Source: Apostichopus japonicus
Lineage: Eukaryota; Echinodermata; Holothuroidea; Aspidochirotida; Stichopodidae
Length of the DNA: 64,000 bases
Direction of reading: 5' to 3'
Assembly (NCBI RefSeq): GCF_037975245.1
Contig: NC_092576.1
Location: 5,230,501-5,294,500, forward strand
In this document: piece after piece, positions 13,221 to 64,000 of the stretch
Layout of the letters: each line of letters begins with the position of its first letter
Position numbering within the stretch: position 1 is the first letter of the stretch
Translations under genes and position numbers: made by a program
The notes under the pieces: model-generated
Seen by the model: the letters and a program-made list of their open reading frames with translations, nothing else
The model's database searches: none
What the model was told of the DNA's origin: nothing

Positions 13221-13241
13221 ATATCTATCACAAACCTTTTC

Positions 13242-14138: not shown

Positions 14139-14164
14139 GTAAGTCGTTTTCTTTGATAAAGTTA

Positions 14165-17700: not shown

Positions 17701-18243
17701 TCCGCATTATCCATCGAATCACTGGACCGAACACAAGGAGTTCAGAGTTTGATGTAAAGAGGTAGAGCGCAATGCAAGGTAGAATCCACAGAAAAAACAA
17801 GAAGTTGTCCAACTTTTTAACTTCGGCTTGATATAGCTCGGTGAAACATGTCATAGGTATGACTCAGGTAAACCTCTCCCATAAATTGTACATTTGCGCC
17901 TGTTCGATAAAGCTCCGAAACTGTTTCTGTACATTTCTCTTGCACTTGCAAATCATTCAAAGTCTAAATAATCTAACTATCATATCTTTGTAAGGGACAC
18001 GTTACAGTTTACATTTCTTATTGTTATAGAAATTATTCGCAAAGATGTTCAATTAATTAGCAGATTAGCTTGACCAGTGTGAATTGCTTGAGTTTGAAAA
18101 GAGCTTTAACAGTGAATAATTGCTTCCCTGCGACCTTTATTGTTGGCAAACCCAACTAGTTAATATAACACCATATAAATATTCCTAATATTTGCTGGTT
18201 GGACAATATTGTTTTAGTTCGTCTTTCTTTTTACAATTTGCAG

Positions 18244-18891: not shown

Positions 18892-19269
18892 GTAAGAACT
18901 ACATTAAAATGCAAGAACTTCCCAAAACTATTTTATGTGCAGGTTAAATTTTATGTGGTATGCCAGTTGACGTAGTAAACCTAAACTGATCTAATGCATT
19001 TGTTGTTTTGATGTGGAATTGAAGGAAAAGCGTTGCAAATAAAGGGACAGAGTTTAACAAAATCAACGTGTAAGTAATGTACTTTTACTTTGTATGCGGT
19101 GTAAAGTTCTTGATACCTATTTGACATACCGTTGTATATCATTCACATGCATGTTTGGGCTACTATGAACCTATTTATTATAGCTGTGTTGATTTGTTAT
19201 CTGGAGATGATGTCAACTTGTATCTGGAGTTGTTGATGTCCATGTTTTGACTATTTCTTGGTATTTCAG

Positions 19270-19377
19270 AGGAGGAACGACGAACTGGTTGGGTTGTTAT
19301 TGTTGTCGTTGTGTTAATTGTGTTGATGAGTTGCATCGTCGTACTTCTGATCGTGTTCCGCCGCCGCCGACTGAAAG
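19270..19377 (+). CDS. IgSF receptor gene A, transmembrane exon
   Basis: A 108-nt exon (36 codons, phase 1 to 1) lies between GTATTTCAG and GTAATTTATT. It encodes EEERRTGW, then a hydrophobic helix of about 22 residues (VVIVVVVLIVLMSCIVVLLI) and a basic stop-transfer RRRR. This predicts a type I single-pass protein with the Ig domains outside. It is homologous to 61,255-61,350 in gene B. Confidence 0.88.
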
Positions 19378-21172: not shown

Positions 21173-21280
21173 AAGAGAAAAATTCCAAAGATCAACAGGG
21201 TACAACAGCATCAACACAACAGCAACCGCAGCAACAACTATTCAAACCTACGATAGAGGTGACAGAAGAAGAATTAAAAG
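21173..21280 (+). CDS. IgSF receptor gene A, Gln-rich cytoplasmic exon
   Basis: A 108-nt exon (36 codons, phase 1 to 1) lies between TTATCCGTAG and GTATCTAAG. It encodes EEKNSKDQQGTTASTQQQ, more Gln, then KPTIEVTEEELK. It is likely an unstructured juxtamembrane tail. Gene B has a counterpart at 63,279-63,365 ending VTKEELK. No tyrosine is present, so any signalling motif must come from later exons. Confidence 0.8.
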
Positions 21281-21509
21281 GTATCTAAGCTACCTATGTT
21301 TAGTTCATTATTTCATGGATTATTTACAAATTTCAATCACTGTGTACTTCATATTGATGTAAGAAGCGATTCGTTCTCAGTTTGAATTATCAAGTTTTCC
21401 TGTATTGCACTTGCCTATACATTTAAGTTATAGTGACCCACAATGAAATATATAGAATACGAGTATACGGCTGATACTCATAAATCGACCTTGTTCTTTC
21501 ATTTTAAAG

Positions 21510-21755
21510 CCTCGTGTAAGCATGTTATAATTTCGAAAGACCAAACTCGAGATGTACACGATGGGCTAGTGAAGAGGTTGAAGGAAGCATCTGAAAGACG
21601 GGTGAAAAACTTTTTATAAGAATTTCTATTATTACTTTAATTTCGATTCAGTGTGAAGAGGAAATACAGAAATGATGTACCTAAGCTTGATGTTCTTTTG
21701 TCAAACCATGACAAGTGGTGGAAGGATCTGAAAATATTATACATTGAGAATATAG
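21510..21755 (+). CDS. Possible alternative tail exon(s) of gene A, unrecognised
   Basis: After ATTTTAAAG an open frame in phase 1, matching the Gln-rich exon, reads ASCKHVIISKDQTRD, then GLVKRLKEASERR, before GTGAAA at 21,602. A second open piece (21,659-21,755) reads KYRNDVPKLDVLL, DKWWKDLKILYIENIG, then GTGACC. The gap between them is only about 57 bases, unusually short for an animal intron, so the pieces may be a decayed exon. The LKILYIENIG pattern is faintly leucine-rich-repeat-like. Function is not assigned. Confidence 0.3.
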
Positions 21756-22778
21756 GTGACCGATCCGTATATAGTTATCTTCGTTATTTCATTCAAGTTT
21801 GTTTAAACTTTCAAAATAAAACATTAGTTACAACATCCACTAAGTTCATATATACATCTAACGAGTGCTTGCCCAATATGTTAACCGTTCAGTCATGTCT
21901 TAATTCATGATGTTTCGATATTTCAAAAAGCGACGTCACGTATTTTTGACTTTCAGTGAGTTAAAACTCTTGTTTACTTTTCTTAATACTTGTTTCTGTT
22001 GAAGCAAATGATACATGAAATGTTAAAACAAAATTGCCTGAATATAGTGTCCACTTGATTTTAGTAATTTTCAAACTCTATCGAAGAAAACTGCAAAGTG
22101 GATTAGCACGTTGTAATATAGATACGATTTAACTGATTAATAATTACTGTAGGTAAAATAATGGACTTCGTAATCATACACGTGATGTTGTAATAATTAT
22201 CATGAAATATGTCAATTTGTTGTGTTTTTTGTGAAGAATAATTTTTAAACTTTAAATGCTTCAAGTTACGGCGATTAAGATATGAATATTACATAACTAT
22301 GTGTAAAATTGATATATATTAAATGAAAAAAGTTTTTGTTGGTACAGAGGTGAGCAATGTTCCTTTGATTGCTGGTCATCTCCATTGTCAATTAGCCTTT
22401 TGCTTACCGATTCACATCATGTGTGGGGCTTACCTATCTTAAATTAAACCTGCAGGCATAAATTCATTAAATAGAATCATGGAGCAAAAAGCTCCAGGCA
22501 TCGTCATATCAATATTATAAATAAACATTACCTGAGCTAATTTGAGACAACTGTCATGTTTCAATTTTCATATAAGGTTTCTTTTGTTACACGATATGTA
22601 AAGAAACACCTTACTTAGATTGCTAAAGCAAGTATAAACTGCATTTCTGTTGGCCAATCTTTGAATTACTTTGTGATCTATCTTAGTTAGTCAATGATAT
22701 AAACAATGTTGATAACGATTTGAGCTGCCTCATTCATGTTTGCTCAAACTTATAATATGTAGTTAATTTCTTGAATAG

Positions 22779-22990
22779 GTTGGCATTCAAAGGATTATAC
22801 TGCGAGATAGCTTTACGTCAGTTGAAGAAAACGGTGGAGCTATTAATCTAAGCTCTGGGGCAGTTTTACCTCCGCTTAACACTTTGAAAGGATTGAGCTT
22901 TGAAAACGAAAAATGGCAGCAATGGGACTTAACCAAATTGATAAGTATCCTGCAATATGCTTGTCACAGCAGTCCACCGACCGATATCAA
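22779..22990 (+). CDS. Possible exon, LRR-like, unrecognised
   Basis: After TTCTTGAATAG an open 212-nt segment runs to a good donor (GTAAGC at 22,991). It encodes VGIQRIILRDSF, NGGAINLSSGAVLPPLNTLK, GLSFENEKWQQWDLTKL and ISILQYACHSS. The spacing of L-P-P-L-N-T-L-K-G-L-S-F resembles one leucine-rich repeat. It could be a tail exon of gene A, or a leftover from an LRR gene inserted here. It ends in phase 2, and no exon entering in that phase was found. Confidence 0.3.
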
Positions 22991-22999
22991 GTAAGCGTT

Positions 23000-24936
23000 G
23001 TTACTTTGAACAGTCGACTACTGTTCATAATGTCTGAGAAAGAGTTACATTTATTCAATTTACCTATTTGTTGGAATAATTACTGTAACAACTATATGTG
23101 AAGACATTTTAGCGACATGTCGAACCGTCTCGTGCTTACTCACACACAATAACACGTACAAAATATACCTCATTTAAATAATTGATTGATTTATCTACCA
23201 AAGAAATTCGGTGGTATGCTCCTTCGTTTGAGCAGGCTGCATCAGATATGAAATGAAAACAAAATGATAAAAATACTTGAGCCCGCATTTGTGGACTTAA
23301 CAATAAAAGTATAATATTGCACACCTTTCAGTTTATCTAATAGCAAAACATTGACGAAGTAATACAATTTTTTTCTCAAAGGATTGAAAGAATTCTGCTG
23401 CCCTTTAAATTTGAGAACAAGTTGAGCACGGTACAACAGGAGCCGCGTGGTAAGAATGCAGTATAATAAATTACTGTTACAAATATCTTGATCTTTACAT
23501 GTAATTGTTGATGAGGTGAAATGAAGTTGTGTAACTGATTGCATCTGCACGATTAAGAACAATGACTTATGCGTTTATGATAATCCTGTGTTCAACTGGT
23601 TTGAGAAAAATTAGTAAAACACGAAAAAAGGAGATTTCTTCACGTCTTTATCTAAAACCCTAAAGCTACATTTTTACCTACTGGGCTCATATTTGCTTTC
23701 GTCGGGCGTAATGCCAGTAGCATAGCGCATTTCTTATCGAAGCCAAATAGATTAATGCGATGGTAATTGTACGTGCATTTTGGTATGTTGTGGGCATGTG
23801 CGACACGCTTTGTCTAAACACTTCAAGTCTAAAAGAACATGATGGTTTAATGTCATACTTGGGATGTTGATCCAATTTAGTAAACAGAAGAAAAATTCTT
23901 TGCTTCAAAAGTGAAATGAAGTAAACGATGGTCAAAGCTTTAAAATCTTTTTAAACACAATGCGTTATAAAGTACAGTTTGGATGAAATTTATAGGTGGT
24001 AGTTGATATAACGTAATGAATACAAGAATTCTCTATTTTTTGTTATTCTTCTTTCTTTCTTTCTTTTTATTTATCTATTTATTTACTTATTTTTTGGGCG
24101 GGGAGGGTGGGGGTATTTGAGGTAAACACTCAGTTGATAAGAGTATATTTACATTGTAATTGACCTCTGGACTGTATAAACACAGTACCAGACCAGTGTA
24201 TAATCCATAAGTGGTCTCAATCAGGTACATTGCTTTCATGTTTGTTCAATTGATATTTTCATCGTATAGTGTTTCAGCATCTATTTATGGTTTGAAGATT
24301 TATGTTTATTTCAAGCTCCAGAAGTACTATATAGATAGGGTTGGATTGTCATCTTATCCTAGATGCAATAATCACTGTTTTCTGGAGTGGGAAAGTGGAA
24401 GGGAGGTAGTACCTGTTCATCTTTGCAGTCATGATAAGACATGCGTATATTTGCGATATATCATGATATGGAATATGAACGGTCAACATATCCGAAGATA
24501 GTTGGTTGTGCTTTGAAAAGGTCAAAGTGGAAAGACCTAGTTAAAAATTCTATATAATAGCAACTCGGATGGATATGACATCATTAACAGATTTATAAAA
24601 TACGTTCTACAATAACTAATGTATTTTCCATTGGCCTCTTTTCTTCCCATGTGTTTCCATATAAGCAGTAAACGGACAGTTGTTGTCCTCACAGGGAAAG
24701 GGAGTTTTTAGCAAAAAGAGTTGTTAACAGAAGATTATTACTTGTGCCACAAATACAGGTGGCACAGTTTATCTGTTGTATTCTAGAATTACTAGGTATA
24801 TCAATTATTGTCTTCAAAAAATAATTAAATGTTATACATCCGGATGTAGCTGGCAAAACGGGCTTGTATAAATGTTTTACACGTTTAAGGTTCCATAGAC
24901 CAGACTAAAGAAAACTCTTTTTTCGGTCTCTTTCAG
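23000..24936. other. Intronic or intergenic, no gene seen
   Basis: AT-rich sequence with a short TTTC tract near 24,050-24,090. Small open frames have no features. Confidence 0.5.
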
Positions 24937-25004
24937 TCGAGTGGGTAACTGGTGTTGCAGCTGCAGATTTACAGCGTATTAATTATGACACTGGACAGTG
25001 GGAG
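24937..25004 (+). CDS. IgSF receptor gene A, distal tail exon 1
   Basis: A 68-nt exon lies between GTCTCTTTCAG and GTATGTCC. It enters in phase 1, matching the end of the Gln-rich exon, and leaves in phase 0. It encodes EWVTGVAAADLQRINYDTGQ, then WE. It is assigned to gene A by phase, orientation and strong splice sites; the 3.7-kb intron before it is unverified. It contains one tyrosine (INYDTG). Confidence 0.5.
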
Positions 25005-25216
25005 GTATGTCCTGGTAATAATATGTTATATGAAGAAATTGTTTTAGATAGACTTATTTTATATAGATTCTTCTACTTAGTAGAAGAACTAACATAGTCA
25101 AATTCATCTCGGTTTCGTCTTAATAACACATTTTATGTTCTTGCTAAGGTCGTCTTGCATACATATCAAGGTAAGTAATGTGTACTAATCATTTTGCTAT
25201 TTTTTTATTCACACAG

Positions 25217-25261: not shown

Positions 25262-26577
25262 GTAAGTATACATAACTTAGTGCAAAAAAGAATGTGAACA
25301 GTTGAATTCAGCAACACTTGGTTCCACTCAGCGACTCTCATATTTTGAAGGAGTTGCGCAATTACGTTTTACTTATGGGGAGGGGGGGGGGGTGGAGGAG
25401 GTGGTTGCCCCACGGCTTTTCAGAAGGTATATTAGACAGAACAGCAATGACCTGGATGTATCAGGATAATGTTAAGAAGTATAATTAATTGCCTATACTT
25501 TCGTATTTATAAATGAAACGGAAAAATGAAAATGAAATGAAAAATACCACTACGATTTACTGTATTGTATCTTTAGCATATCTAGCTTTCGCATGCTCCC
25601 AAAACATAACACGTGTTAGTGTGTTATAACACCCTGGCATATAAATGCATAATATGCTACACGTTAAGAACAAATATAAGCTCACACCTTTTCGGCTTGG
25701 GTGGAATGTAATGTTAGAATTACTTTATGCCAAGACGATCAGTGTAATACACTGAATATTCATCAGTTTATACACAGACAATAGTGCTTTGTAGATGCGC
25801 GAATGTATCAGGCGTACAAGGAACGAATAAAGGATTCATTGTTTTGTGCAAACGTTACATTTCGTTTACATTTCCACTTCCGGTAATTACATATCTGGTA
25901 TATTAGCTGGTATGCTTACCTACTAATGATGCTAACTGTAGACTAAGTTAGAGATGAACAGAGGAATGGATATTTAAGAAACAGGACAATGTTTTACATT
26001 TTTAAGGCAATGAGCGATGAATTCCCATTATATTAATTGTATAACCATTGTGCAATTAAGCAGTAATTGGTGTATCATATTATGTTAAATTTGTATATTT
26101 AACTTAGTGACAATATTAAACTGTCGGCTGTTTCACATCTTGTTTTTCAGTGTACGAAGTTTGAGGGGTTTTTTTTTGTTTTTGTTTTGCCATGCTGTAA
26201 TAACTCTCCACATTACCATAATTCCTAGCTTATAGACATCTTCTCTACAATCAAAGCCAAACTGGTGGTTTGAAATTGATTATGAATGATTTATTACCTC
26301 TTGCAGAATTAATTATGAACAAACCCAAAGTATATGAACACATTACGTTTTAAGTTCTGTATTACACTCTTATGTGATTGTCGTTGGCAAATAGATACTC
26401 TGCAATTAGCTTCTTCACAAGAAACAAACTGTTATAAAGTAAATAAATACACAGATTAAGGTCACTTCCAATTTAAGGAGAAAATATTTCATTTCATGTT
26501 TTCTTTCCGTGTTAGTTATGCATGTTTGTTTATGTGCGTGATAATATTGAACTTCATGTTTTACACTTGTATTACAG
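25262..26577. other. Presumed intron, no gene seen
   Basis: AT-rich sequence with a G-rich tract at about 25,378-25,405. Confidence 0.4.
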
Positions 26578-26601
26578 AAAGAGAAGGCAAATGAAGCAGT
26601 G
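26578..26601 (+). CDS. IgSF receptor gene A, distal tail micro-exon 3
   Basis: A 24-nt exon (phase 0 to 0) lies between TTGTATTACAG and GTAAGTTA. It encodes KEKANEAV. Both splice sites are near consensus, which is the main support. The terminal exon with the stop codon was not recognised downstream. Confidence 0.4.
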
Positions 26602-28325
26602 GTAAGTTAACTGGTAAATTCAGTATCCTATTGTTAGTGGAAACTATGCCTGTACTTTTCATCAGGTTAAATTATCAAATTATTCTACGAGCAGGAAAGG
26701 ATTATATAGATATTGTGGTAAATTTGGTGAAATATTAAAGAAAACATTGTACTTACGAGTAAAATGTAAGGATTTGTATGTGTATGACCCATAATATTTG
26801 GGTGGCACAAAATATGGGGTTTTAGTGTATTAATGAATACACGCTTTACGCTCTCCCGCTTTTTCTTTCCCTAAAATCTCATTAGGTTAGGACAACTATT
26901 TACCATGATGACCCCAAAGACGGCAGGGCCTGGTGGGGTGGTCTGGTCGTGGACTTAATTCTCCACCCGACTTTTTGGCCTGTACTGAAACCTGTATTTG
27001 ACAAAACAAAACGAGCGAAAAGTCTCTGCATAAACTAAAAGCAACTGAAGTCGAAGTTTTTAGATTAAATGACGTCAGTTTGAGGAAATGGTTGAAAGTT
27101 TGAGGTATAGTAGTCGGAATTTGCAAGGAAAAAAGTCAAAAGTTAGAGAATAGGAATATAGAATAAGGAAAAAAAATAGAATTTTTGTTATGAACTCTTT
27201 TGACATATTTTCTTATTCTATGGAAATAATGAAGCAAAGAGGTAACAAAGGTCGAAAGATAGACATTTTGAGATAAGAAACATAGATTTAGGTTTTACAA
27301 CTTCGAAAAGAAAGTGGAACTGATATAAACAAAAGCGAGGTTTAGTTGGTGAAGCAGTCAAAATTTCGAGATAAAATATTGAAGTTTACCATCTGCAGTG
27401 GCCCAACGAAGCATAAAAAGTAAAATTCGTCTAGCAAAGATACCCAAAGTGACCACCGGTTATTATTCTCCCATCCCACTCCCCATTCTTTTGGTAGCTC
27501 CCTACGTACCTCACTGACTGTTGCTGTTGAGTTTGCCTTATACGTCACAGAGGACAATGTTCGATAAATCTTAGTAAAAGTCGCCCATTGTAAAATGGGA
27601 TCCCCCGTTCTTGGACTGCCGTGTAAGAGGAAGTAAATATGTTATGCATTTTAACTGGTTATTGGCTATGTGTCACATGCACATCATCTGTTCTAATTGC
27701 AAAATAAATTAATGTGTTACCACAAGGGACTCTATCAATAGACATTAATAAAATATAAATGTACACACGAAGGGAGAAGAAGCCGACTGGGAGACCAAGG
27801 GTATAACATGACTGGGGATGCCCTCATTGCCCTACCAAACCTCATGTCCTCCCCGCACCTTGGTTCTGCCACTACGGTCATGACTGTATTCACAACAAGA
27901 TAGTGTGGTTGCCATGGTGAATTTCTTGTGATAACATGGTAGCACGTAGTTTATGAAGTCATGAAATCGCAACAATGGTAAAATGAAAGATCTTTAAGCT
28001 AAATGATTTTGGAATTCATTGTATAGGTGTTCTCTGAATGCAAAGTGAATGATGTAAACACTGAATAGTATAATAACTGCAATAAGATCACTATTCACAA
28101 TTTTAATTTTGTTAACCTTGTGTTTGCTACATAAAACATGCTAAATGTCTTTTCTTCTTGTTGATCAGATTTCATATTTTAATGTTGTATGTGATAATAT
28201 TCTTACCCATTTGTTGCTTTCGGACCGACCGAACGGAAGGTTAAATCTCAATTCTGCGATTCCTTATCTGAACCGTGTTCTAGATTCATAGGTAACATAA
28301 TAATAATATATCATGTGTTGTAAAA
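26602..28325. other. No gene seen
   Basis: AT-rich sequence with no domain or repeat unit recognised. If gene A continues, its last exon should be in or beyond this stretch. Confidence 0.4.
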
Positions 28326-28329
28326 ACTA

Positions 28330-28990
28330 CTACAGTACTAATGTCATCATTTGTTTACAATCAATAAGCTTCCGAACTAATGCCGTCATTTGTGTAATTA
28401 TGTCGTCATTTGGGTACACTCATTAAGCTACAGTATTAGTGTTGCCATTTGTGTACAATCAGTAAGATATATACAGTACAATGGTGTCTTTTGTGAACAA
28501 TCACTTAGCTAAAGTACTAATGTCATCATTTGTGCACAATCAATAAGCTACACTACTAATGTCGCCACATGGGCACAGTCAATAAGCAACAGTTCTAACG
28601 TCTTACTTTGTGTACAATCTCTAAGGTACTGTATATACCCTTGTCATCATTTGTGTACAATCTCTAAGCTACAGTTCTAATGTCGTCATATGTGCACAAT
28701 CAATAAGCTACAGTACTAATGTCTTACCTTATGTACAATCTCTAAGTTACTGTAGTATTGTCATAATTTGTGTACATTCTGTAAGCTACAGTACTATGTC
28801 ATCATTTATGTACAATCACTTAGCTAAAGTACTAATGTCGTCATTTCTGCACAATCAATAAGCTACAGTACTAATGTTTTACTTTGTGTACAATCATAAG
28901 CTACAGTACTAATGTCGTCATTTGTGAACAGTAAGTAATATGCACTACACATGTCGTCCTTTGCCTTCCTTTACGCACAATCACTAAGCT
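28330..28990. repeat. Minisatellite, about 40-bp unit
   Basis: Degenerate copies of AATGTCGTCATTTGTG, CACAATCAATAAGCTACAGT and ACT repeat head to tail about 15 times, with substitutions and small indels. Confidence 0.85.
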
Positions 28991-29289
28991 AATGTACAAT
29001 GTGTAAAGTTATTACTGAGATAGGATACAATGATTTAATGAGTATGGAAACATGCACCTATTCTGCTTGTGTATATTCATATATTTGTATATTTCAATTA
29101 ATTAGAGCAAAGCTGTTGGCAGACTCGGATCATAAACAATCGCCATCCGATGTGAAAGTTTGAAATTTGAAAGGCAGGTGGACGACGTCCGTATGATGCA
29201 ACTGAATCATCTCTCGTTTTAACAGATTTGACTAAGAGAGATAAGGAAAATGCAGCTTTGTTCGTAAACACACAGAGAATCTTCGATCA

Positions 29290-40407: not shown

Positions 40408-40967
40408 CAGAACAAAGAACGGCGGTGCACCATTACCAGGTTACCTCTGAAATCGCGTTCACTTGCTTTCTCAGACGTGAAACGAATCGTTCTATTTTTG
40501 TCATCAAGAGATGGAACAGCCTAATGGAAACAGCGACACGAAGATAAACAAAGAGAATGTCAACTGTGTATATTAATAAACACGCAATGTATCTGCAAAG
40601 TTATTGATCAAATGGAATTTTGTATAATCTCCCCGTGTTCATATATTTGCTTTCTGCTTTTGGTTGTGTCTGTATCCTTTAATGTCAGACGATAACGTTA
40701 AAGACGCTCCGTTCAAGAACCAATGATTGTCCAGCTGTTTTATTTAAAATCTATGTTGTAACTTACAGCCTTACTGTAGATGATAAACATTGTTACATGA
40801 CTATGACCGCCTGCAATCTTAACATTTATATTCCTTCATTTATTAGATCTGTGAAGGATCTAAAAGTTAAACATCATTTTATTTTGTCGATCCTAAAGGA
40901 TTAGAAAAGCACTAACGATCGTTGATGGTTTACTGAAAGCGAGAACAGAAACTGCTTGTGATTCAAT
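40408..40967. other. Upstream of gene C; 76-bp segment shared with 42,729-42,805
   Basis: CAGAACAAAGAACGGCGGTG and onward (40,408-40,484) closely matches CAGAACGAAGAACGGCGTTG at 42,729. The remaining sequence up to the ATG at 40,968 shows no clear promoter element. Confidence 0.5.
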
Positions 40968-41286
40968 ATGGAGAGAATTTGGTTCACATTCTTATTTATT
41001 TTCTTCGTTTCTGGTTCACCTGGATCTAAAGACACAATAGTTGTCAGACTTGTTGAAAGAGATTCTGTGATCTTGAAATGTAATGGATCTGCGACAAGAG
41101 GAAACAAATGGTTTATTGACGATCGAGTCATCTTTGCAAATGAAATAAGTTTTGATTCTTTAGCGGGTGTCAGCTTATCGAATGACTACTCATTATCAAT
41201 ATCAGACGTTACATTCAATCACCAAGGATTGTATAAATGTTATCGTAACAATATCCATGTTGTGAGCTACCAAGTGACAACAGTAG
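40968..41286 (+). CDS. IgSF receptor gene C, signal peptide plus Ig exon
   Basis: The ATG at 40,968 starts MERIWFTFLFIFFVSGSPGS, a typical signal peptide. One Ig-like domain follows: VILKCNGS (B-strand Cys), NKWFIDD (Trp) and HQGLYKCYRNN (F-strand Cys), so the canonical disulphide pair is present. The exon ends in phase 1 at GTAAGTAATG. Leader and first Ig domain share one exon, unlike genes A and B. The gene is therefore a different receptor subtype, in the same orientation and between the two duplicates. Expected location is the cell surface; ligand unknown. Confidence 0.75.
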
Positions 41287-41318
41287 GTAAGTAATGTAAC
41301 AATATTTGTACTGCCATG

Positions 41319-41321
<3 letters not shown>

Positions 41322-41357
<36 letters not shown>

Positions 41358-41388
41358 TATATATATATATTTATATATATATATATAT
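41322..41388. repeat. (TA)n microsatellite in gene C intron 1
   Basis: TA run with TAAATA and TTTATA interruptions. Confidence 0.95.
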
Positions 41389-41712
41389 CTGTGTTGCAAT
41401 AATTCAAAATAAACATAAACCATGGTGTAAAGTAAGATTTCTTAAGAGATCTATTTCAAATAATTCCAAATAATGTAACTCATGGCGTGACGATTTTAAA
41501 GCATGTACCCTACAATTGCATGACATTAGAACGAAGCTGCAATTGGAGAGCAAATGTATCAATAAAATAGCGGCCACTTATCACAGTATTTGAGGTTATC
41601 TTACAATTTATTGAGAATTATAGAGCTGTATACTCAAGAAATACAAATAATAGACCACACTTCAGTCTTGCTTTCATGTTAGAATTATCTTGTATGTATG
41701 TATGTATTTTAG

Positions 41713-41913
41713 ATCCTCATGCAAGCAGGAACTCGCGAAGAAGCCTCATTGACCTATCAAAGACGCAAGCTGACCAAAGTCAGTCTCTTAGATTCATATT
41801 TAACGTCCATGATTATGAATTGTCAATTGTCAACAACTCTGTAACTAGACGTCATACATTAATCTTGGAGCGAATCGAACCGGGGACCTGGAATTGTGTA
41901 ATTATTCATTACT
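41713..41913 (+). CDS. IgSF receptor gene C, second Ig-like exon (tentative)
   Basis: Between TGTATTTTAG and GTATGTTG a 201-nt segment (phase 1 to 1) encodes DPHASRNSRRSLIDL, QSLRFIFNVHDYELSI, RRHTLILERIEPGTWNC and VIIHY. The end (LERIEPGTWNC) resembles Ig E-F strands, but no B-strand Cys is visible, so the domain is atypical or degraded. The donor was chosen because it keeps phase 1 to the next exon. Reading on through it would reach a stop at 41,969. Confidence 0.5.
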
Positions 41914-42211
41914 GTATGTTGTATGTTGTTGCATATTTTGAAGTAATTACTTATTACCTGATTTACTGATTGAGTGCGCGTAAATGTTCCTATTTAATTT
42001 ATAGATCACTAACATATCTCTTTCAAAGTTCTCGCTACCCCTCCCCTCCCTTGCGAAGGGCTAAGTAACTTAGTGTTAATATAATCTTTTGAGGGCAGGG
42101 CAAATGAAAGTTCCTGAACAGATGTATTTAACATGATGTCCGACTATTTATAATAGTTGAAACATATATTATTGCAATCTTAAAATATCTTAGATTATTA
42201 TATTTCTCCAG

Positions 42212-42505
42212 TGATTCCAGAGCTTATATTGTCATTTGATCAACGCACGGACGGCAAACCGACCCGTTTATATGATTACTTAGTACAGGATCGAAGCAAA
42301 GCTCTAAAGGTTAGATGTATTGCTATAAGTTCCAGACCTCCTGCTAGCCTAACGTGGGTTGTGAATAGTGAAGATATAGACGCATCCAATGTACACAATG
42401 TACTATACAAACCAAACAAGGAGGGGGTAAATACCACAGACTCAGAATCTACATTACATCTACCACCAACTGGAACTCACGTCAAAATTTTATGTCACAA
42501 ATTTT
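42212..42505 (+). CDS. IgSF receptor gene C, third Ig exon, 3' end disrupted
   Basis: After ATTTCTCCAG, in phase 1, the sequence reads VIPELILSFDQRTDG, ALKVRCIAISSRPPASLTWV, SESTLHLPPTGTHVKILCH. This is a C2-type Ig domain with B-strand Cys (VRCIA), Trp (LTWVV) and F-strand Cys (KILCH). Just after the last Cys the reading runs into LINE-type sequence and a stop (42,523-42,525), so the G-strand and exon end are lost or displaced. Without splicing around it, the product would be a truncated protein lacking a membrane anchor. Confidence 0.65.
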
Positions 42506-42726
42506 TGTCACTAACTTTTTTCTAATAGGGTTGTGAATGAGTGGAACGGTTTGGCTGAGAAAGTTGTACTTGCAAGTAGTGTGAATGGGATTAAGAATGA
42601 TTTGGACAAGCACTTGAAGCATTGAAATCGGGTCTGAATGTTTGTTTCTTCATTTCTTTTATATTTTATGAAGACTTGAGTGTCCCTCCTGATCCTTTTT
42701 TCTACTAAACTAAACTCTAAATCTCA
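42500..42726 (+). mobile_element. LINE 3' end (reverse transcriptase C-terminus), 5'-truncated
   Basis: In the frame at about 42,505 the sequence reads LFSNRVVNEWNGLAEKVV, then SSVNGIKNDLDKHLKH and a stop at about 42,624. 'FSNRV.N.WN.L...VV.A.SVN.FK..LD' is the familiar C-terminal end of non-LTR reverse transcriptases. About 100 bases of T-rich 3' untranslated sequence follow. It lies directly after the last Cys of the third Ig exon of gene C. Confidence 0.7.
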
Positions 42727-42796
42727 CACAGAACGAAGAACGGCGTTGCACCATTACCGAGGTGGCCTCTAAAATAATCTTTTCTAGCTTTTTCAG

Positions 42797-43023
42797 ACGT
42801 GATATTAATAATTATATTATTATTACTTCGCAGAAATACTTCACGATGCTCGAGTACAGACGTTTCCACGATCAACCATGAACCGCAATCATTGAGTCCA
42901 TCAGCTGAAATGATGACAACTGAATATCACAAAGTCGTAACACATTGTTATTTTAGAGATCATGTGGCAGCACCTAACGACATTCCCGAGTATCAGGAGA
43001 TTGAACAGCTCAATGAAAACTAA
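42797..43023 (+). CDS. IgSF receptor gene C, membrane-proximal and tyrosine-motif tail exon
   Basis: After CTTTTTCAG, in phase 1, the exon encodes DVILIIILLLLRRNTSR (a hydrophobic stretch of only about 10 residues plus a basic stop-transfer), then a cytoplasmic tail to TAA 43,021-43,023. The tail has MMTTEYHKVV, a TxYxxV motif (42,919-42,936) matching the immunoreceptor tyrosine-based switch motif consensus TxYxx(V/I) of SLAM and PD-1 type receptors. It also has PEYQEIEQL, a YxxI motif (tyrosine at 42,991). The hydrophobic part is too short to span a membrane, so part of the helix may lie in an upstream exon lost or hidden near the LINE insertion. Confidence 0.6.
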
Positions 43024-47022: not shown

Positions 47023-47459
47023 TCTATGGAATGAACAATCTGCTTCTTCCGGACCAGTACAACTGGCGATGCCCATGGGCTTGATGAAGGTTCAATGATG
47101 TCCTGGCCTAGCATTCTTTCTACCTCGTTCTCGGCCTCTTCCTTGCGGTGTATCGGGAGGCGACGCGGGGCCTGTCGAATTGGCCTAGAAGTTCCGGTGT
47201 CGATTGCATGTTGGACCAAGTCAGTGCGCCCAAGGTCCCCTTTACATCGAGCAAAGACGTCTGCATTATCGGCCAGAAGTTTTTTCACCAATTTCGCTTC
47301 CGCGTCACCAAGGTAGTCAGAGCTCTGCTCTGCTAGCTTATGCAAATGTTCGTCCAGAGTTGCATATTTCTCCTTGCATTCTACAACGCTTCTCTCCCTG
47401 GTCTTGCAACGGGCAACTGTTTTTTTCTTCAATTCCTTTTTTCTTCTGCAGAAAGACAT
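47010..47459 (-). pseudogene. Retrotransposon pol: start of reverse transcriptase, truncated
   Basis: On the minus strand: VKKLLADNADVFARCKGDLG, VQHAIDTGTSRPIRQAPRRL, VERMLGQDIIEPSSSPWASP and VVLVRKK, then unrelated residues and a stop. This is the N-terminal part of a gypsy-type reverse transcriptase up to the SPWASPVVLVRKK block. The catalytic YxDD region is absent because the sequence switches to the inverted repeat at about 47,022. Confidence 0.85.
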
Positions 47460-48076
47460 TCACCCACAGTAGTGCCTTCGTAAAGTGGTAGGGGTCTGCT
47501 CGTCGGATTCATTAGTCGTAAAGGTATGGTTTCCTTATTGGCGTTCACAATGGCCCTAGCGATCATCACGGGGTGCTTCTCGAGAAACTTCTCGCTGCAC
47601 TCCACAACAGCAGATTCTCCTTGCATTTTCCAGCCTGGGACTCGGGCCGTCGCCATCCCTCCGCTCGAGGCAGGAACAACCACCGCCTTGGCTAACACAA
47701 CTCTGCACCTATCAAGCTTTTCCTCAATGGTACTCTGCTGTAGTCCATCAATGGTCATCTCCCCCTTTCCAGCGGCTATCGTGCAATCGAATCTCTGTAA
47801 GAAGTCGTACCCAAGTAGAGCATCAGCGTCTATATCTGCCACCCAAATATCATGCATCGCTTCTAGTTGCCCCACTTTAACCAGGAATCTACCACGTCCC
47901 ATACTGTGTAGTGGTCTACCATCCGCTACCGCCAAATTCTCTGCAACGTCGTCAAGGACCTTATTCCTCTTAGCGCACAGTCGCTCAAAGAACTTCGTTT
48001 GCATAACAGTGAACTCAGACCCGGTGTCGACAAAGAAATTCACAACGACCCCTTCCAGCTGCCCCTTCACGTACAA
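47429..48076 (-). pseudogene. Retrotransposon aspartic protease region
   Basis: On the minus strand: VNFFVDTGSEFTVMQTKFF with the DTG active-site triplet, and later DADALLGYDFLQRFDC, the usual second conserved block of retropepsins. The stretch is free of stops, but it belongs to an element without complete reverse transcriptase or integrase. Confidence 0.85.
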
Positions 48077-48220
48077 ACCACGGGTACCAACGGACCGGAC
48101 TCTGCTCCTAAAAAGTGGTATTGCGGGCTCACCTAGCGGAAAAGTCAGACTCAGCCCTACGAATCCGACTTCTGCTCGTTTTCCGTCTTCTTTACGCCAT
48201 CCGGTCGGCTCTCGTATTTC

Positions 48221-55534: not shown

Positions 55535-55589
55535 ATGTCTACAACAAACCTTTTTGTGATCCCTGCTATCCTTTGGTGCATTTTAAGTG
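55535..55589 (+). CDS. IgSF receptor gene B, signal-peptide exon
   Basis: The ATG at 55,535 immediately follows TTTCTTTCTCAG. The exon encodes MSTTNLFVIPAILWCILS and a split Gly codon, ending in phase 1 at GTAAGATC (55,590). A short N-region, hydrophobic core and small residue near the junction fit a signal peptide. Only one such exon precedes the three V-like exons, since the duplicated units start downstream of it. The start is better preserved than in gene A. Confidence 0.82.
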
Positions 55590-56118
55590 GTAAGATCCAG
55601 TACCGGGTACCGCATTTATCTCGGAGAGTGGAGGGAGGGGGGGGGGGGCTGCGGTGGGTTATATATGTATGGGAGAAGGAAGGGTTACATGTTTACATAA
55701 AGATACAAGAAGTGAAATGAAAGACCTGCATTTCGGTATTAAGACTTCATATGTCTGGAGAAGTACTTACTCAATCACATCACATGCATACGCCCAGCAT
55801 TGAAAGGGACGAATTGTCAGGTAAAGGTTGGGGTTGGTGACCTTTGTAAATGTGGTGAATGTGTCTGGCAAACTGATGGAAATGCAATGTGGAGGATGCT
55901 ATTCTGTTTGGGGTAGGATGTCATTCGAATGGTATTTTTTAATTGTAGTTGAATGCAAGGCAAAATTCATTACAATTTCATATGATGGTTCTATGTTCCT
56001 TAGACTTAACAATTTATACATTTTGGACTGGAGAATGGAACTCGGTCTGAGAGAAAAATATACTACAACTTTCATTTGATATAAAACAAGATAAACGTCT
56101 TTTTTTCTTCAATTACAG

Positions 56119-56448
56119 GAACGGTTGTCTCATCAGATAAGTGCCAGACTCCGCAATATCTGCAATTGGGGAAGAAAGGTATAATATCCTGCAACTTTCC
56201 TGGTGATTTATATGGAACAGTTTGGTACAACTCGTCCAATTTGACTAGCGAAGATCGACAACTAATTTCCAACATAGAAGGTTATGTATTTGGACCCGGA
56301 TACGAGTCCGGAGAATACGGTGTTCAACCTGATGGATCTCTTGTAATCAACACAGTTTCCACCAAACATGATACTTATTTCGGTGTATCGACATTGGCGA
56401 CTACAGAAGATGATCCAATCGTTGAATATGTCCGTGTAGTTGTCTACG
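56119..56448 (+). CDS. IgSF receptor gene B, V-like Ig exon 1
   Basis: A 330-nt exon (phase 1 to 1) between CTTCAATTACAG and GTAAGTCG. It begins GTVVSSDKCQTPQYLQLGKK, with the extra N-terminal Cys. The B-strand is GIISCNFPGD, the C-strand TVWYNSSNLT (sequons NSS and NLT), and E/F strands are GSLVINTVSTKHDTYFGVST. The F-strand Cys is replaced by Gly (TYFGV). It ends IVEYVRVVVYG. It is a V-like extracellular domain. It differs from exon 2 at three bases only, all within about 20 bases around HDTYFGVS. Confidence 0.9.
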
Positions 56449-57496
56449 GTAAGTCGACTTCTTTGATAACAACATGCATATCTGTCGAAACACTGGACCG
56501 AGTTCAGAGTTTGGAACGAAGAGGTAGAGCACAATGCAACGTGGAATCCACAGAAAAAGAAACAGTAAGAGGTTCAACATTTCGACTGGCGCTTGATAGA
56601 GCCCAACGAAACACGTCATAAGCATAACACAGGGAAATCCCTCCCATAAGTTTTAGATACGCGCCTGTTCGTTTGATCTCCGAACCCTTTTCTGTACATC
56701 TCTCTAGCTCATGTAAATATTCAACCTCAAGTCATCCTCTAATAAGAAAACAATCTAGCCAATGACCAATTTTATACCTACTGTTTGGAGATTTCTTCTC
56801 AGAAATCGTTCGCGTTTATTACGAATAAAAGCTTGGTAAAGGATTCCTCGATGATCATCACATTCTCCTATCATATCTCGTTATCATTTTTCAGACATGT
56901 CTCCCTTTAGCTGACAATAAAAAAGTCAATCGGGGGTTTGTTCATTTATCAATCCATCCATTTATTCATCCCCATCCCCCATCATATGTTTATTATACAA
57001 ACGATGAAAGAAGAGACTGGGGGACTGCGGTGGGTTATATATGTAAGGGAGGAGGAAGGTTTACATGTTTACATAAAGATACGAGAAGTGAAATGAAAGA
57101 CCTGCATTCTGGTATTAAGACTTCCTATATGTCTGGAGAAGTACTTACTCAATCACATCACATGCATACGCCCAGCATTGAAAGGGACGAATTGTCAGGT
57201 ATGGGTTAGGGGTGGTGACCTTTGTAAATGTGGTGAATGTGTCTGGCAAACTGATGGAAATGCAATGTGGAGGATGCTATTCTGTTTGGGGTAGGATGTC
57301 ATTCGAATGGTATTTTTAAATTGTAGTTGAATGCAAGGCAAAATTCATTACAATTTCATATGATGGTTCTATGTTCCTTAGACTTAACAATTTATACATT
57401 TTGGACTGGAGAATGGAACTCGGTCTGAGAGAAAAATATACTACAACTTTCATTTGATATGAAACAAGATAAACGTCTTTTTTTCTTCAATTACAG

Positions 57497-57826
57497 GAAC
57501 GGTTGTCTCATCAGATAAGTGCCAGACTCCGCAATATCTGCAATTGGGGAAGAAAGGTATAATATCCTGCAACTTTCCTGGTGATTTATATGGAACAGTT
57601 TGGTACAACTCGTCCAATTTGACTAGCGAAGATCGACAACTAATTTCCAACATAGAAGGTTATGTATTTGGACCCGGATACGAGTCCGGAGAATACGGTG
57701 TTCAACCTGATGGATCTCTTGTAATCAACACAGTTTCCACCAAACATAATACTTATTTCGTTGTATCAACATTGGCGACTACAGAAGATGATCCAATCGT
57801 TGAATATGTCCGTGTAGTTGTCTACG
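57497..57826 (+). CDS. IgSF receptor gene B, V-like Ig exon 2
   Basis: A 330-nt exon (phase 1 to 1) with the same splice signals as exon 1. It is identical to exon 1 except in the F-strand segment, where it reads KHNTYFVVST like exon 3. The Cys position is Val. It therefore looks like a mosaic: exon-1 sequence carrying an exon-3 patch. Whether it is used together with, or instead of, its neighbours cannot be told from DNA. Confidence 0.9.
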
Positions 57827-58873
57827 GTAAGTCGACTTCTTTGATAACAACATGCATATCTGTCGAAACACTGGACCGAGTTCAGAGTTTGGAACGAAGA
57901 GGTAGAGCACAATGCAACGTGGAATACACAGAAAAAGAAACAGTAAGAGGTTCAACATTTCGACTGGCGCTTGATAGAGCCCAACGAAACACGTCATAAG
58001 CATAACACAGGGATATCCCTCGCATAAGTTTTAGATACACGCCTGTTCGTTTGATCTCCGAACCCTTTTCTGTACATTTCTCTAGCTCATGTAAATATTC
58101 AACCTCAAGTCATCCTCCGATAGGAGAACAATCCAGCCAATGACCACTTTACCCCTACTATTTGGAGATTTCTTCTCAGAAATCGTTTGCGTTTATAACG
58201 AATAAAAGCTTGGTAAAGGATTCCTCGATGATCATCACATTCTCCTATCATATCTCGTTATCATGTTTCAGACATGTCTCCCTTTAGCTGACAATAAAAG
58301 AAGTCAATCGGGAGTTTGTTCATTCATCAATCCATCCATTTATTCATCCCCATCCCCCCATCATGTGTTTATTATACTAACGATGAAAAAACGACTGGGG
58401 GACTGCGGTGGGTTATATATGTAAGGGAGAAGGAAGGGTTACATGTTTACATAAAGATACGAGAAGTGAAATGAAAGACCTGCATTCCGGTAATAAGACT
58501 TCCTATATGTCTGGAGAAGTACTTACTCAATCACATCACATGCATACGCCCAGCATTGGGAGGGACGAATTGTCAGGTAAGGGTTAGGGGTGGTGACCTT
58601 TGTAAATGTGGTGAATGTGTCTGGCAAACTGATGGAAATGCAATGTGGAGATGCTATTCTGTTTGGGTAAGGATGTCAATTGCATGGCATTGTTTTAACT
58701 GTAGTTGAATGCAAGGCAAAATTCATTACAATTTCATATGATGGTTCTATGTTCCTTAGACTTAACAATTTATACATTTTGGACTGGAGAATGGAACTCG
58801 GTCTGAGGGAAAAATATACTACAACTTTCATTTGACATGGAACAAGGTAAACGTCTTTTTTCTTCAATTACAG

Positions 58874-59203
58874 ACACGGTTGTCTCATCAGATAAGTGCC
58901 AGACTCCGCAATATCTGCAATTGGGAAAGAAAGGTATAATATCCTGCAACTTTCCTGGTGGTTTATATGGAACATTTTGGTACAACTCGTCCAATTTGAC
59001 TAGCGAAGATCGACAACTAATTTCCCACAGAGAAGGTTTTGTATTTGAACCCAGATACGAGTCCGGAGAATACGGTGTTCAACCTGATGGATCTCTTGTA
59101 ATCAATACAGTTTCCACCAAACATAATACTTATTTCGTTGTATCAACATTGGCGACTACAGAAGATGATCCAATCGTTGAATATGTCTGTGTAGTTGTCT
59201 ACG
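58874..59203 (+). CDS. IgSF receptor gene B, V-like Ig exon 3
   Basis: A 330-nt exon (phase 1 to 1) between CTTCAATTACAG and GTAAGTCG. It differs from exon 2 at about 12 bases, nearly all changing the protein: Asp to Gly and Val to Phe near the Trp (GGLYGTFWYNSS), then HREGFVFEPRYESG in place of NIEGYVFGPGYESG, and Arg to Cys in VEYVCVVVYG. The new Cys near the G-strand is an odd addition. It is the closest exon to the constant body and the most like the single V-like exon of gene A in its flanking intron. Confidence 0.9.
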
Positions 59204-60245
59204 GTAAGTCGTTTTCTTTGACAACAATATGCATATCTGTTGAAAAACTGGACCGAGTTCAGAGTTTGGAGGGAAGAGATAGAGCACAATGCAACGTGGA
59301 ATACACAGAAAAAAACCCATAATAGGTTCAGCATTTCGACTGGCTCTTGATAGAGCCCAACGAAACACGTCATAAGCATAACTCAGATAAATCCCTCGCA
59401 TAAGTTTTAGATACATGCCTATTCGTTTGATCTCCGAACCCTTTTCTGTACATTTCTCTAGCTCATGTAAATATTCAACCTCAAGTCATCCTCTAATAAG
59501 AGAACAATCCAGCCAATGATCAATTTTACCCCTACTATTTGGAGATTTCTTCTCAGAAATCGTTTGCGTTTATAACGAATAAAGGTTGGTAATGGATTCC
59601 TCGATGATCATCACATTCTCCTATCATATCTCCCTTTAGCTGACAATAAAAGAAGTCATCGGTGTTGTTTTTTTCATTCATCAATCCATCCCTTTATTCA
59701 TCTACTCACTCACTCATATGTTATAATACAAACGATGAAAAAAAGAGAAAAGTGAGACTCTGTCCGCATACAAACCATACACAAGATAAAATATTCTCAT
59801 GTGATTAGTAGCCTACTATAATAGAGTTGCAATGGTTCAACAGTGTAAGAAGTTACATTACTGAAAAACCATTAGCACTGAAGCCACTTTCATTGTGAGT
59901 ATATATATCTAACGGTCTAACTACACTGCATCACATTAAGACCATATAAAGAAGCTATGAATATGTAGAAATAACACGTAGTGTCCACCTGACAACTGGA
60001 TGTCGTTTAGTAAGTACAGTCGGTAACATACTATTTTCAGTTAATCATCTAACTATAATATCTTTGTGAGGAACAAGCTAACGCTTACATTTCCTATTGA
60101 AATATTTAACAAAGAATAACGACTTCCGTGCGCCCTTTAATTGTTTGTAAACCCAACACAATTAATAAAAGACCATATAAACATGCCTAATACTTTTTGG
60201 CTGGACATTATTATTTTAATACGTCTTTCTTTCCACAATTTGCAG
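59204..60245 (+). other. Intron of gene B between V-like exon 3 and the two-Ig exon
   Basis: About 1 kb, ending in a polypyrimidine tract and TTTGCAG. No extra exon seen. A pyrimidine-rich CATTCATCAATCCATCC stretch near 59,680 is shared by all three V units. Confidence 0.7.
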
Positions 60246-60881
60246 ACACACCACCTGAACCGTACCCAACCATTGATGCTACTGGATGTTACCAGAAATC
60301 ATTATGCTTTTTAGAATTAAACGCTGCTTCAAGTTTAAGTTGTAATGTTTTACGAGTAGGTGAAGTATTAGATGATTTGTCATGGAAGTTAAGTACTAAC
60401 AGTGGGGATGGACAGATCTCTTCGCAGTCGAAAGCTGTAACGACCAGTGTCAATGAATTACAATCTTACCATACTGTTGTGAATATTTCGTTACAAAACT
60501 CTCTCTCATTACGTTTATTCATCTGTGCAGCAAGAAGCGATGTGTCTGAGGTAGGTAACAGTGAATCTACGATACTGGTTGAAAGCGGGACACTTCAAGC
60601 ATCTAGCGAACATCTGCTTGTGCCTCCTAATGAAAGAGTGGTTATGAACTGCGGAGAAGATGTGTTATTCTTTGTATGGAAAAAAGTGGGTCCAACGGAA
60701 CAAATGTTTGCATTTGGAACTAAAAGTATGAGTAAAGTTATGATGCCTGGGGGATTCACATTGCAAAATAGCTCTCTTGTCATTAACACGGCTGGAAATC
60801 CTACCCTGGGCACGTACACGTGTGTTTATAGCACTGACGGTGTAACAACGAAATTTACATCAACTGATGTAACTCTTCAAG
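60246..60881 (+). CDS. IgSF receptor gene B, two-Ig-domain exon
   Basis: A 636-nt exon (212 codons, phase 1 to 1) between CACAATTTGCAG and GTAAGATC. The first Ig domain has SLSCNVLRVG, LSWKLSTN and LFICAARSDV. The second has VVMNCGEDV, FFVWKKVGPT and GTYTCVYSTDG. Canonical Cys pairs and Trp are present in both, with an additional Cys pair near the start (TGCYQKSLCF). It is the shared body for whichever V-like domains are spliced on. It aligns end to end with the gene A exon, with scattered replacements. Confidence 0.9.
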
Positions 60882-61254
60882 GTAAGATCTAAGTTAAAGT
60901 GCGAACCTTCCCAATTACTATTTATTTGCAGGTTAAAGTATATGTGTTGTGCCAGTTTACTTAGTAAACCTGAACTTATAGAATGTTTTTCTTGTTTTGA
61001 TTTGGAATTGAAGGAGAAGTTTTGCTGATAAAGTGACTTAGTATTAATAATAACTTATATGTACTTTTACTTTTATAAGGTGTATAGTTTTGGATACCGA
61101 TTTGATATAAACCCCTATATATCATTCACATGCATGTTTGGGCTACTATGAACCTATTTATTATAGCTGTGTTGATTTGTTATCTGGAGATGATGTCAAC
61201 TTGTATATGGAATTGTTGATGTTCATATTTTGACTATTTCTCTTCGCATTTTAG

Positions 61255-61350
61255 AGGAGGAACGACGAACTGGTTGGATTGTTGTTGTTGTGATTTTGGT
61301 GTTCTTGGTGTTATTGATTTTCATCGGAGTCGTCCTCTATCGATGTAAAG
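61255..61350 (+). CDS. IgSF receptor gene B, transmembrane exon
   Basis: A 96-nt exon (32 codons, phase 1 to 1) between CGCATTTTAG and GTAATTTACT. It encodes EEERRTGW, then the hydrophobic span IVVVVILVFLVLLIFIGVVL and YRCK. A type I membrane anchor, shorter on the cytoplasmic side than gene A (no RRRR). Confidence 0.88.
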
Positions 61351-61657
61351 GTAATTTACTGATTAATCAGTAAATATCAATCTTACTCTGAAGTATCTAA
61401 TAGACTCCTGCTTAATTGACTGATTGATTTTCGGTTCTGGTTTCTTTTGCACTCAGGCTGTTGTCGAGGCTTACTTAGATAACTCTAGACTGTGAAATGT
61501 TTTCCCGATCAGGTATCTCTGCTTAATTTATATTTAAATACTTCGAAGCCATTGCAAATAAGTGATTCCTGAATATCTGATTCAGCCTTTCCTTGCCCCA
61601 TTAACGGCTATTCCATGTTCCCATCATTGATAAGACATTGTGTCAACTCCGACTTGT

Positions 61658-62045
61658 AGAATGAGGGTAGGGGTGGGGGTCTTCCATTACAAAATAGGGC
61701 ATTCCCTGCAGATAACATCCCAGGTACAGTACAGTATCATGAGGAGGGTCTTCCATTTCAATAGTAGGGCATCCCCTGTAGAATACACCCCCAGTACACT
61801 ATAACAAGGGAGCCAGATTGCAACCGCGTACAGTAGCATGAGGGGTGGGATTAGGGTCTTCCATTGCAATAATAGGGCATCCCATGCAGATTACACCCCC
61901 TGCCCCCGTAAACTATAGTGCGGAAGACCTTTCATTGCTAGGGCATCCCCTGCAGATTGCACCACTCGTACACTAGCTTGAGGGGCGGGATGAGGGCCTT
62001 CCAAAGCAATAATAGGGCATCTCTCACATATTACATCCCCCATAT
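61658..62045. repeat. About five copies of an 85-bp repeat (GTCTTCCATT..GGGCATCCCC)
   Basis: Units contain CATGAGGGGTGGGA, TCTTCCATTGCAATAATAGG, GCATCCCCTGCAGATTACAC. Gene A has only one such unit (about 19,680-19,750), so this is an expansion specific to copy B. Confidence 0.8.
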
Positions 62046-63278: not shown

Positions 63279-63365
63279 TAGAGCGTAATTCCAGACAACT
63301 AATGAGTACAACACAACAGCAACTACTCAATCCTGGTGAAAAGGTGACAAAAGAAGAATTAAAAG
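63279..63365 (+). CDS. IgSF receptor gene B, Gln-rich cytoplasmic exon
   Basis: An 87-nt exon (29 codons, phase 1 to 1) between TATCTGCAG and GTATCTAAG. It encodes VERNSRQLMSTTQQQLLN, then EKVTKEELK. It is the counterpart of 21,173-21,280. By analogy with gene A, further tail exons should lie beyond the window's right edge. Confidence 0.8.
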
Positions 63366-63584: not shown

Positions 63585-64000
63585 CCAGCTTGTAAACAGA
63601 ATATCTCAAAACGGGAAGTTGGACCAACTTCATGTTTGATGTGTAGATGTACTACATTGAGTACAAAAAGGCTATCGTTTTCTGTGCAGGTCAAGGTCAT
63701 TTGGGGTAGCCAGGGGTCAAAATGTGGAAACCTTGTAAACACAATATCTGAAGAAGGGAAGCTTGGGCAGACCTCATATTTGGTGTGTAAACGTACCACA
63801 TGGAGCACAAGAAGCCTTTTTTTTCTGTGGAGGTCAAAGTTGATTAGGGTCACTAGGGGTCAAATTGTAAAAACCTTGTTAACACCATAGCTCATGAAAG
63901 GAAGATTGGACAAACCTCATATTTAATGTGTAGAAAGTACCACATTCAGTACAGGAAGCCTATTGTTTTCTGTGGAGGTCAAAGGTCATTTAGGGTCGCT
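63585..64000. repeat. 143-bp tandem repeat, continuing past the window
   Basis: CTTGTAAACAGAATATCTCA (63,590), CTTGTAAACACAATATCTGA (63,733) and CTTGTTAACACCATAGCTCA (63,876) mark three units of about 143 bases. Each carries AGGTCAA(A)GGTCA-type text. It is the same broad family as the complex at 29.3-32.5 kb. Confidence 0.88.

What the first reader, a model, noticed from the sequence alone, without database searches (positions are those of the whole stretch)
55535..61350. Tandem array of three phase-matched V-like Ig exons behind a single signal exon
Gene B has one signal exon, three V-like exons of exactly 330 nt (all phase 1-1), then one two-Ig exon and one transmembrane exon. The exons are in tandem 1.38-kb units and nearly identical. 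This layout allows either stacking (three V-like domains) or mutually exclusive choice, the principle used by arthropod Dscam for diversity. The frame logic is seen directly; the diversification role is inference. I know of no described echinoderm receptor with this design.
Basis: partly seen in the sequence, partly recalled or inferred. Interest (0 to 1): 0.88.

Follow-up and report, generated by a model that had tools for sequence, protein, structure and literature searches.

The report
Sea-cucumber receptor with stacked V-exons
A sea cucumber gene for an immune-type cell-surface receptor carries three tandem copies of one binding-domain exon, most likely joined into one longer receptor rather than chosen one at a time, and it sits in a cluster of related genes that mostly carry one to four such copies.

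Summary
At 55535-61350 a signal exon is followed by three 330-nt V-like exons (phase 1-1, AG/GT, pitch 1378 and 1377 nt), a 636-nt two-Ig exon and a 96-nt TM exon; the gene continues past the window.
The genome matches Apostichopus japonicus. NCBI's model of this gene (P0024, 814 aa, 100% identical) stacks V1-V2-V3. V1 and V2 differ at 2 of 109 residues, so choosing between them would add little: stacking is supported, Dscam-like choice is not. I saw no transcript.
The gene is one of about 27 in 1.45 Mb; 8 of 26 V-bearing genes have 2-4 tandem V exons, and most group by position across genes. Of 7 multi-V genes with an NCBI model, 5 are stacked in full; gene F omits an intact V, and partly disrupted gene E keeps one of four, so optional skipping stays possible.
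The V domain has a V-set fold without the canonical Cys pair. Distant V relatives often precede a NACHT exon (31 of 110; cluster 0 of 40): a NACHT-less relative of Ig-NACHT receptors. Microbe recognition is inference.

The parts
55535..55589 (+). signal-peptide exon (coding part from ATG; MSTTNLFVIPAILWCILS, ends phase 1)
   Evidence: N-terminus of P0024
56119..56448 (+). V-like exon V1 (beta type), 330 nt, phase 1-1
   Evidence: P0024 residues 20-128
57497..57826 (+). V-like exon V2 (beta type), 330 nt, phase 1-1
   Evidence: P0024 residues 130-238
58874..59203 (+). V-like exon V3 (gamma type), 330 nt, phase 1-1
   Evidence: P0024 residues 240-348
55643..57018 (+). tandem unit 1 (intron, V1, intron)
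   Evidence: self-BLAST
57019..58396 (+). tandem unit 2 (intron, V2, intron)
   Evidence: self-BLAST
58397..59632 (+). tandem unit 3 (intron, V3, intron; a further stretch to about 59748 matches at 85%)
   Evidence: self-BLAST
60246..60881 (+). constant exon with two Ig-like domains, 636 nt, phase 1-1
   Evidence: weak Ig_3, Ig_2, ig, all under cut-off; 27 copies in the cluster
61255..61350 (+). transmembrane exon, 96 nt, phase 1-1
63279..63365 (+). first cytoplasmic-tail exon, 87 nt, phase 1-1; further tail matches (not exact exon ends) lie outside the window at extended coordinates 64757-64855, 65680-65892, 66267-66341, 67115-67180, 67346-67402 and 71166-71216
   Evidence: contained in P0024

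Best explanation
The locus is one intact gene for a type-I membrane receptor: signal peptide, three stacked V-set-fold domains, two further Ig domains, a TM helix and a cytoplasmic tail of about 200 residues. Because the exons from signal to first tail exon are all bounded in phase 1, a V exon can be duplicated (I infer by unequal crossing-over between introns) without breaking the frame, and ordinary splicing adds each copy to the outer part. Genes of the cluster thus carry ladders of one to four V domains, in which the order of V types is largely inherited. Shown: exon structure, copy numbers, position grouping, annotated models. Resting on NCBI's model only: that the mRNA includes all three V exons. 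Inferred: that extra V domains raise reach or avidity, and that the receptor recognises microbes on coelomocytes, by analogy with the Ig-NACHT receptor AjNLRC4.
Against: No transcript examined; NCBI models may chain near-identical exons without unique junction reads, and apparently come from the same assembly. Gene F's models P0002 and P0011 join V1 to C and omit an intact V2. Gene E's model P0004 uses only the last of four V exons, leaving out two open ones. The upstream-intron tree supports the beta group poorly (69.3/22), the downstream-intron tree is mixed, and genes F and G lie outside the position groups. AlphaFold models are weak overall (mean pLDDT 51 and 56). No expression or ligand data.
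Confidence: 0.74

Rival explanations
1. Cassette model (an extension of stacking, so the odds overlap): V exons are normally all included, but single ones can be skipped, so one gene makes receptors with fewer V domains, as B7-H3 makes 4Ig and 2Ig forms.
For: Gene F has two intact V exons with good splice sites, but the model named 'isoform X1' joins V1 directly to C; symmetric phases allow it; two isoform pairs (P0016/P0017, P0009/P0015) differ by loss of the TM stretch (sequences); B7-H3 precedent PMC3172298 (passages).
Against: For the window gene only the full stack was found. The gene F model could be a prediction error; a model lacking V exons was found in 2 of 7 multi-V genes with NCBI models, and one of those two (E) has disrupted V exons.
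Confidence: 0.35
2. Dscam-like mutually exclusive choice of one V exon as a source of diversity.
For: Tandem interchangeable exons between one signal and one constant exon. Gene F and E models hold one V each.
Against: V1 and V2 differ by 2 residues; five models co-include all V exons. That some Dscam1 alternative exons are not multiples of three, so that double inclusion would break the frame, is recalled, not tested.
Confidence: 0.05
3. Neutral exon amplification: V copies are gained and lost with no selected function for their number (can be true together with stacking).
For: W1/W2 is a recent duplicate inside one gene; gene E is decaying; a C15 array has seven near-identical V exons; for W1/W3 and W2/W3 exons do not differ significantly less than introns (p 0.33 and 0.29).
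Against: 28 of 30 V exons read have no stop (of the other two, E1 is disrupted and L047 was cut wrongly); position groups persist over gene duplications; pN/pS 1.51 over residues 29-38 and 46-63 against 0.48 elsewhere in 18 array exons, but that stretch was chosen after seeing the window's differences, the circular-shift fraction is 0.0499, and 9 single-V exons show no contrast (0.64, 0.62).
Confidence: 0.25
4. Assembly artefact: one V unit tripled by mis-assembly.
For: V1 and V2 differ by only 3 of 330 nt.
Against: Compared intron stretches differ by 2.6-7.9%; W3 groups with gamma exons of other genes, W1/W2 with beta; the published assembly used about 64x PacBio HiFi with 14.7-kb mean reads (PMC10344927, passages).
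Confidence: 0.03

Closest known systems
AjNLRC4 and AjNLR-new, Ig-NACHT membrane receptors of A. japonicus (PMC8699970: abstract and passages; PMC13133943: passages)
   Same: Same species; an Ig-like and an Ig domain, then a TM. Metagenome protein P0027 has such a layout (V-set 28-117 and NACHT 581-734; TM-like stretch read from its sequence) and matches the family at E 8.4e-20, 29% identity over 38% of the query, its V domain at 54.7 bits.
   Different: No NACHT: 0 of 40 cluster V exons have a listed NACHT exon within 30 kb downstream, against 36 of 110 distant V relatives. The tail does not match P0027's. The AjNLRC4 paper predicts one Ig-like domain (31-132), one Ig (251-353) and two TMs; AjNLR-new is reported with NACHT outside the cell. 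Their own sequences were not compared here.
B7-H3 (CD276), PMC3172298 (passages)
   Same: Tandem exon duplication lengthens one receptor by stacking Ig domains; a shorter form arises by alternative splicing.
   Different: Unit is a V+C pair in one vertebrate gene; here V alone, up to four copies, across a gene cluster.
Chelicerate sDscam and Drosophila Dscam1 (PMC4835542, passages)
   Same: Tandemly arrayed Ig-encoding exons feed one constant region.
   Different: There generally one cassette is used per transcript; here five models co-include copies, and the copies are much alike.
CEACAM N-domain and CD2 D1
   Same: V-set fold; best structural matches and best PDB sequence match (biliary glycoprotein, E 2.2e-5). 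That these also lack the canonical disulfide is recalled.
   Different: No orthology shown; 10-20% identity in the rows seen.

Membership tests
Ig V-set domain (Pfam PF07686) | V-set fold | tested here: met
Ig V-set domain (Pfam PF07686) | score over Pfam cut-off | tested here: not met
   0 families at E<=1 for V1, V2, V3; the V of P0005 and P0014 reaches 13.0 and 16.7 bits, cut-off 26
Ig V-set domain (Pfam PF07686) | canonical B-F Cys pair | tested here: not met
   Cys 8 and 24 in 27 of 27; other Cys only at 34, 50 or 105 in some, none in the F strand; disulfide partners unknown
Ig-NACHT receptors (AjNLRC4 type) | V-like plus Ig outer part related to the family's | tested here: met
   P0027 against the family: E 8.4e-20; V domain; alignment; P0027 stands in for AjNLRC4, whose sequence was not compared
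Ig-NACHT receptors (AjNLRC4 type) | NACHT domain | tested here: not met
   none at E<=10 in 123.5 kb; none of 106 listed NACHT exons in C16:4.60-6.20 Mb; 106 of 488 candidates scored; not among the families listed for P0023 and P0024
Dscam | mutually exclusive use of tandem Ig exons | tested here: inconclusive
   no transcripts; five models co-include, two hold one V
Dscam | Ig plus fibronectin III outer part | tested here: inconclusive
   no general FN3 family among the 10 listed for P0024 (one RbmA-like_FnIII at E 0.016, under cut-off); its Ig domains also score under cut-off, so absence is weak evidence. Human and fly Dscam are among the fold matches of the P0024 model, with rmsd over 15
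B7-H3 / CEACAM | orthology to the vertebrate gene | not tested
   only fold and weak sequence similarity seen
A. japonicus cluster family (this report) | own C exon and tail exon in the C16:4.67-6.12 Mb cluster | tested here: met

The most novel reading that the evidence does not exclude
A V-domain ladder system: a clustered invertebrate receptor family in which position-specific V modules (alpha, beta, gamma) are stacked, gained, lost and optionally skipped, so that V number differs between genes, splice forms and perhaps individuals, with selection acting on the C-C'-C'' face rather than on a CDR3-like loop.
Probability: 0.22. Interest if true: 0.76.

Novelty: new variant of a known kind. 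Interest (0 to 1): 0.55.

Why it matters
A recent review describes echinoderm immune diversity as large germline gene families (PMC13428168, passages). Here is a gene cluster in which the V exon inside the gene is also a unit of change, with copies from fresh to decaying, related to functionally studied Ig-NACHT receptors of the same animal. It is a testable case of whether domain number is a selected, variable trait of an invertebrate receptor.

Tried and rejected

NACHT loss read from the tail: I suspected the tail to be a remnant of an Ig-NACHT tail; the tail profile scored -0.5 on P0027 against a maximum of 2.5 in 200 shuffles, so this is not supported. Only the outer part's similarity and the genomic NACHT pattern stand. 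In that pattern the upstream control is 0 of 110 at 15 kb and 1 of 110 at 30 kb; the lists are capped (106 of 488 NACHT and 150 of 297 V candidates scored).

Other species: three protein searches returned A. japonicus proteins plus P0027 only; they need shared 5-mers and are limited by length, so absence elsewhere is not shown. V number in a second animal: P0020 of the fragmented assembly proved to be the counterpart of gene C, so no second count for the window gene exists. Tail-type association: one search gave multi-V 7 of 7 for tails at 80% or more and 2 of 20 for the others, but one search shows that one of the seven is two one-V units, so 6 of 7 against 2 of 20; p not recomputed.

The first V-domain pattern script missed most V domains (12 rows) and was replaced by an HMM. 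Rows dropped: the tree omits isoform duplicates P0011, P0015, P0017, and P0027 (P0021 has no V); omits L047; omits L047, L032, L036; 10 of 40 V exons had no locus. In one search the support label of the alpha group (A1, D1, E1) was lost on rooting, so that group rests on tree shape, and on 89/87 for P0023_V1 with P0026_V1.

Papers: ten searches listed, in the rows shown, no description of this cluster; not all matching papers are shown, and subscription papers and preprints are not held.
Full report
WHAT IS THERE. One signal exon (ATG at 55535) is followed by V exons at 56119-56448, 57497-57826 and 58874-59203, a 636-nt exon at 60246-60881 and a 96-nt TM exon at 61255-61350, all bounded in phase 1, with canonical splice sites. 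V start-to-start spacings are 1378 and 1377 nt; the units are 93.7-95.8% identical. V1/V2 differ at 3 nt and 2 residues, V1/V3 at 15 nt and 10, V2/V3 at 12 nt and 8; the intron stretches compared differ by 2.6-3.7% (V1/V2) and 4.1-7.9% (with V3). The gene goes on: a tail exon at 63279-63365 and others beyond the window.

WHOSE IT IS. The window lies on contig C16 (46,036,110 bases) of a 671,581,487-base genome. The closest proteins are A. japonicus, most of them on a contig of 46,042,199 bases, close to C16 but not equal in length; the published HiFi assembly is 671.6 Mb (PMC10344927, passages). P0024, an NCBI protein of 814 aa, matches the 783-aa query at 100% over its whole length, with V1, V2 and V3 in series; the three V exons equal P0024 20-128, 130-238 and 240-348. 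The first protein search had a length limit that excluded it, hence the second.

THE CLUSTER. A genome search with V2 found 40 V exons at 62-100% identity, all in C16:4.68-6.12 Mb; every other listed match is at 42% or less (150 of 297 candidates scored). The constant exon has 27 copies there, three of them matched in pieces or in part, one of these with a stop; one tail exon has 27 full copies. Pairing V with C exons gives 18 genes with one V exon, 4 with two, 2 with three, 2 with four, 1 with none. Pitches inside the eight multi-V genes are 1.36-1.38, 1.04-1.08 or 0.65 kb. Of 30 V exons read, 28 have no stop; E1 is disrupted at its end and L047 was cut wrongly; E4 is open but its start is altered.

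STACK OR CHOICE. NCBI models hold all V exons in series in W (P0024, 3), D (P0023, 4), A (P0026, 3), G (P0025, 2) and H (P0001, 2; assigned by 65.1% identity, exons not read). Gene F is modelled with V1 and without its intact V2 (P0002, P0011). Gene E is modelled with its last V alone (P0004), although its two middle V exons are open. For gene C I found no NCBI chromosome model, only P0020, two V in series, on a contig of another assembly. These are annotations; I saw no reads. P0016/P0017 and P0009/P0015 differ by the TM stretch (sequences), so a symmetric exon does appear to be skipped elsewhere in the family.

HISTORY. In DNA trees of 29 V exons, A2, C1, D2, E2, W1 and W2 form one group (beta, 88.9/95) and A3, C2, D3, D4, E3, E4 and W3 another (gamma, 92.5/88). 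The upstream intron supports gamma (98.3/99) but beta poorly (69.3/22); the downstream intron is mixed. The window gene is therefore best read as beta-beta-gamma: V1/V2 a recent duplicate, V3 an older distinct module. Genes F and G lie outside these groups. Protein-level support for the same groups is modest (80-89 ultrafast bootstrap).

RELATION TO IG-NACHT RECEPTORS. P0027, a metagenome protein with V-set and NACHT domains, matches the family at E 8.4e-20. AjNLRC4 of this species has Ig-like, Ig, TM and NACHT parts and binds microbes through its Ig part (PMC8699970, abstract and passages). Among 110 distant V relatives 31 have a listed NACHT exon within 15 kb downstream and 0 upstream (30 kb: 36 and 1); among the 40 cluster V exons none does. 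So the cluster looks like a NACHT-less branch related to the Ig-NACHT genes. That its tail derives from theirs is not supported.

VERDICT. A real, apparently intact V-exon array, partly of recent origin, in a receptor gene cluster for which I found close relatives only in A. japonicus; stacking most likely, optional skipping possible, mutually exclusive choice unlikely.

Noticed in passing
window 13215-25049 (matches to the end of P0018 follow at 26528-29219): A second family member with one V exon; its C exon is 100% identical to NCBI P0012. A third lies outside the window at extended 80.6-87.7 kb.
   Followed up: partly
window 40962-43023: Other Ig exons on the + strand (Ig_3 E 6.9e-6 at 40962-41294; C2-set_2 E 3.4e-4 at 42184-42525); gene not modelled.
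   Followed up: no
window 47429-48220, minus strand: LTR-type element frame with a gag-associated aspartyl protease (PF13975 E 2.9e-9), between the Ig genes.
   Followed up: no
G000 C15:4241400-4249602 (L015/L016): Seven V-like exons at about 1.29-kb pitch, repeats 98.6-99.1% identical, exon ends as in the window: a fresher V-exon array in another branch.
   Followed up: partly
G000 C7:15547418-15556160, minus strand (L017/L018): Seven V-set exons in a row that clearly differ from each other, a better candidate for diversity by exon choice or stacking.
   Followed up: no
G000 C12: Many of the 140 listed V-set matches and of the 106 listed NACHT matches lie on C12.
   Followed up: no
G000 C16:5985963-5989770: Four-V gene E with its first V exon disrupted at the end and the last one altered at the start: a decaying array.
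   Followed up: partly
window 61656-62041 and 63589-63997: Short diverged direct repeats downstream of the TM exon.
   Followed up: no
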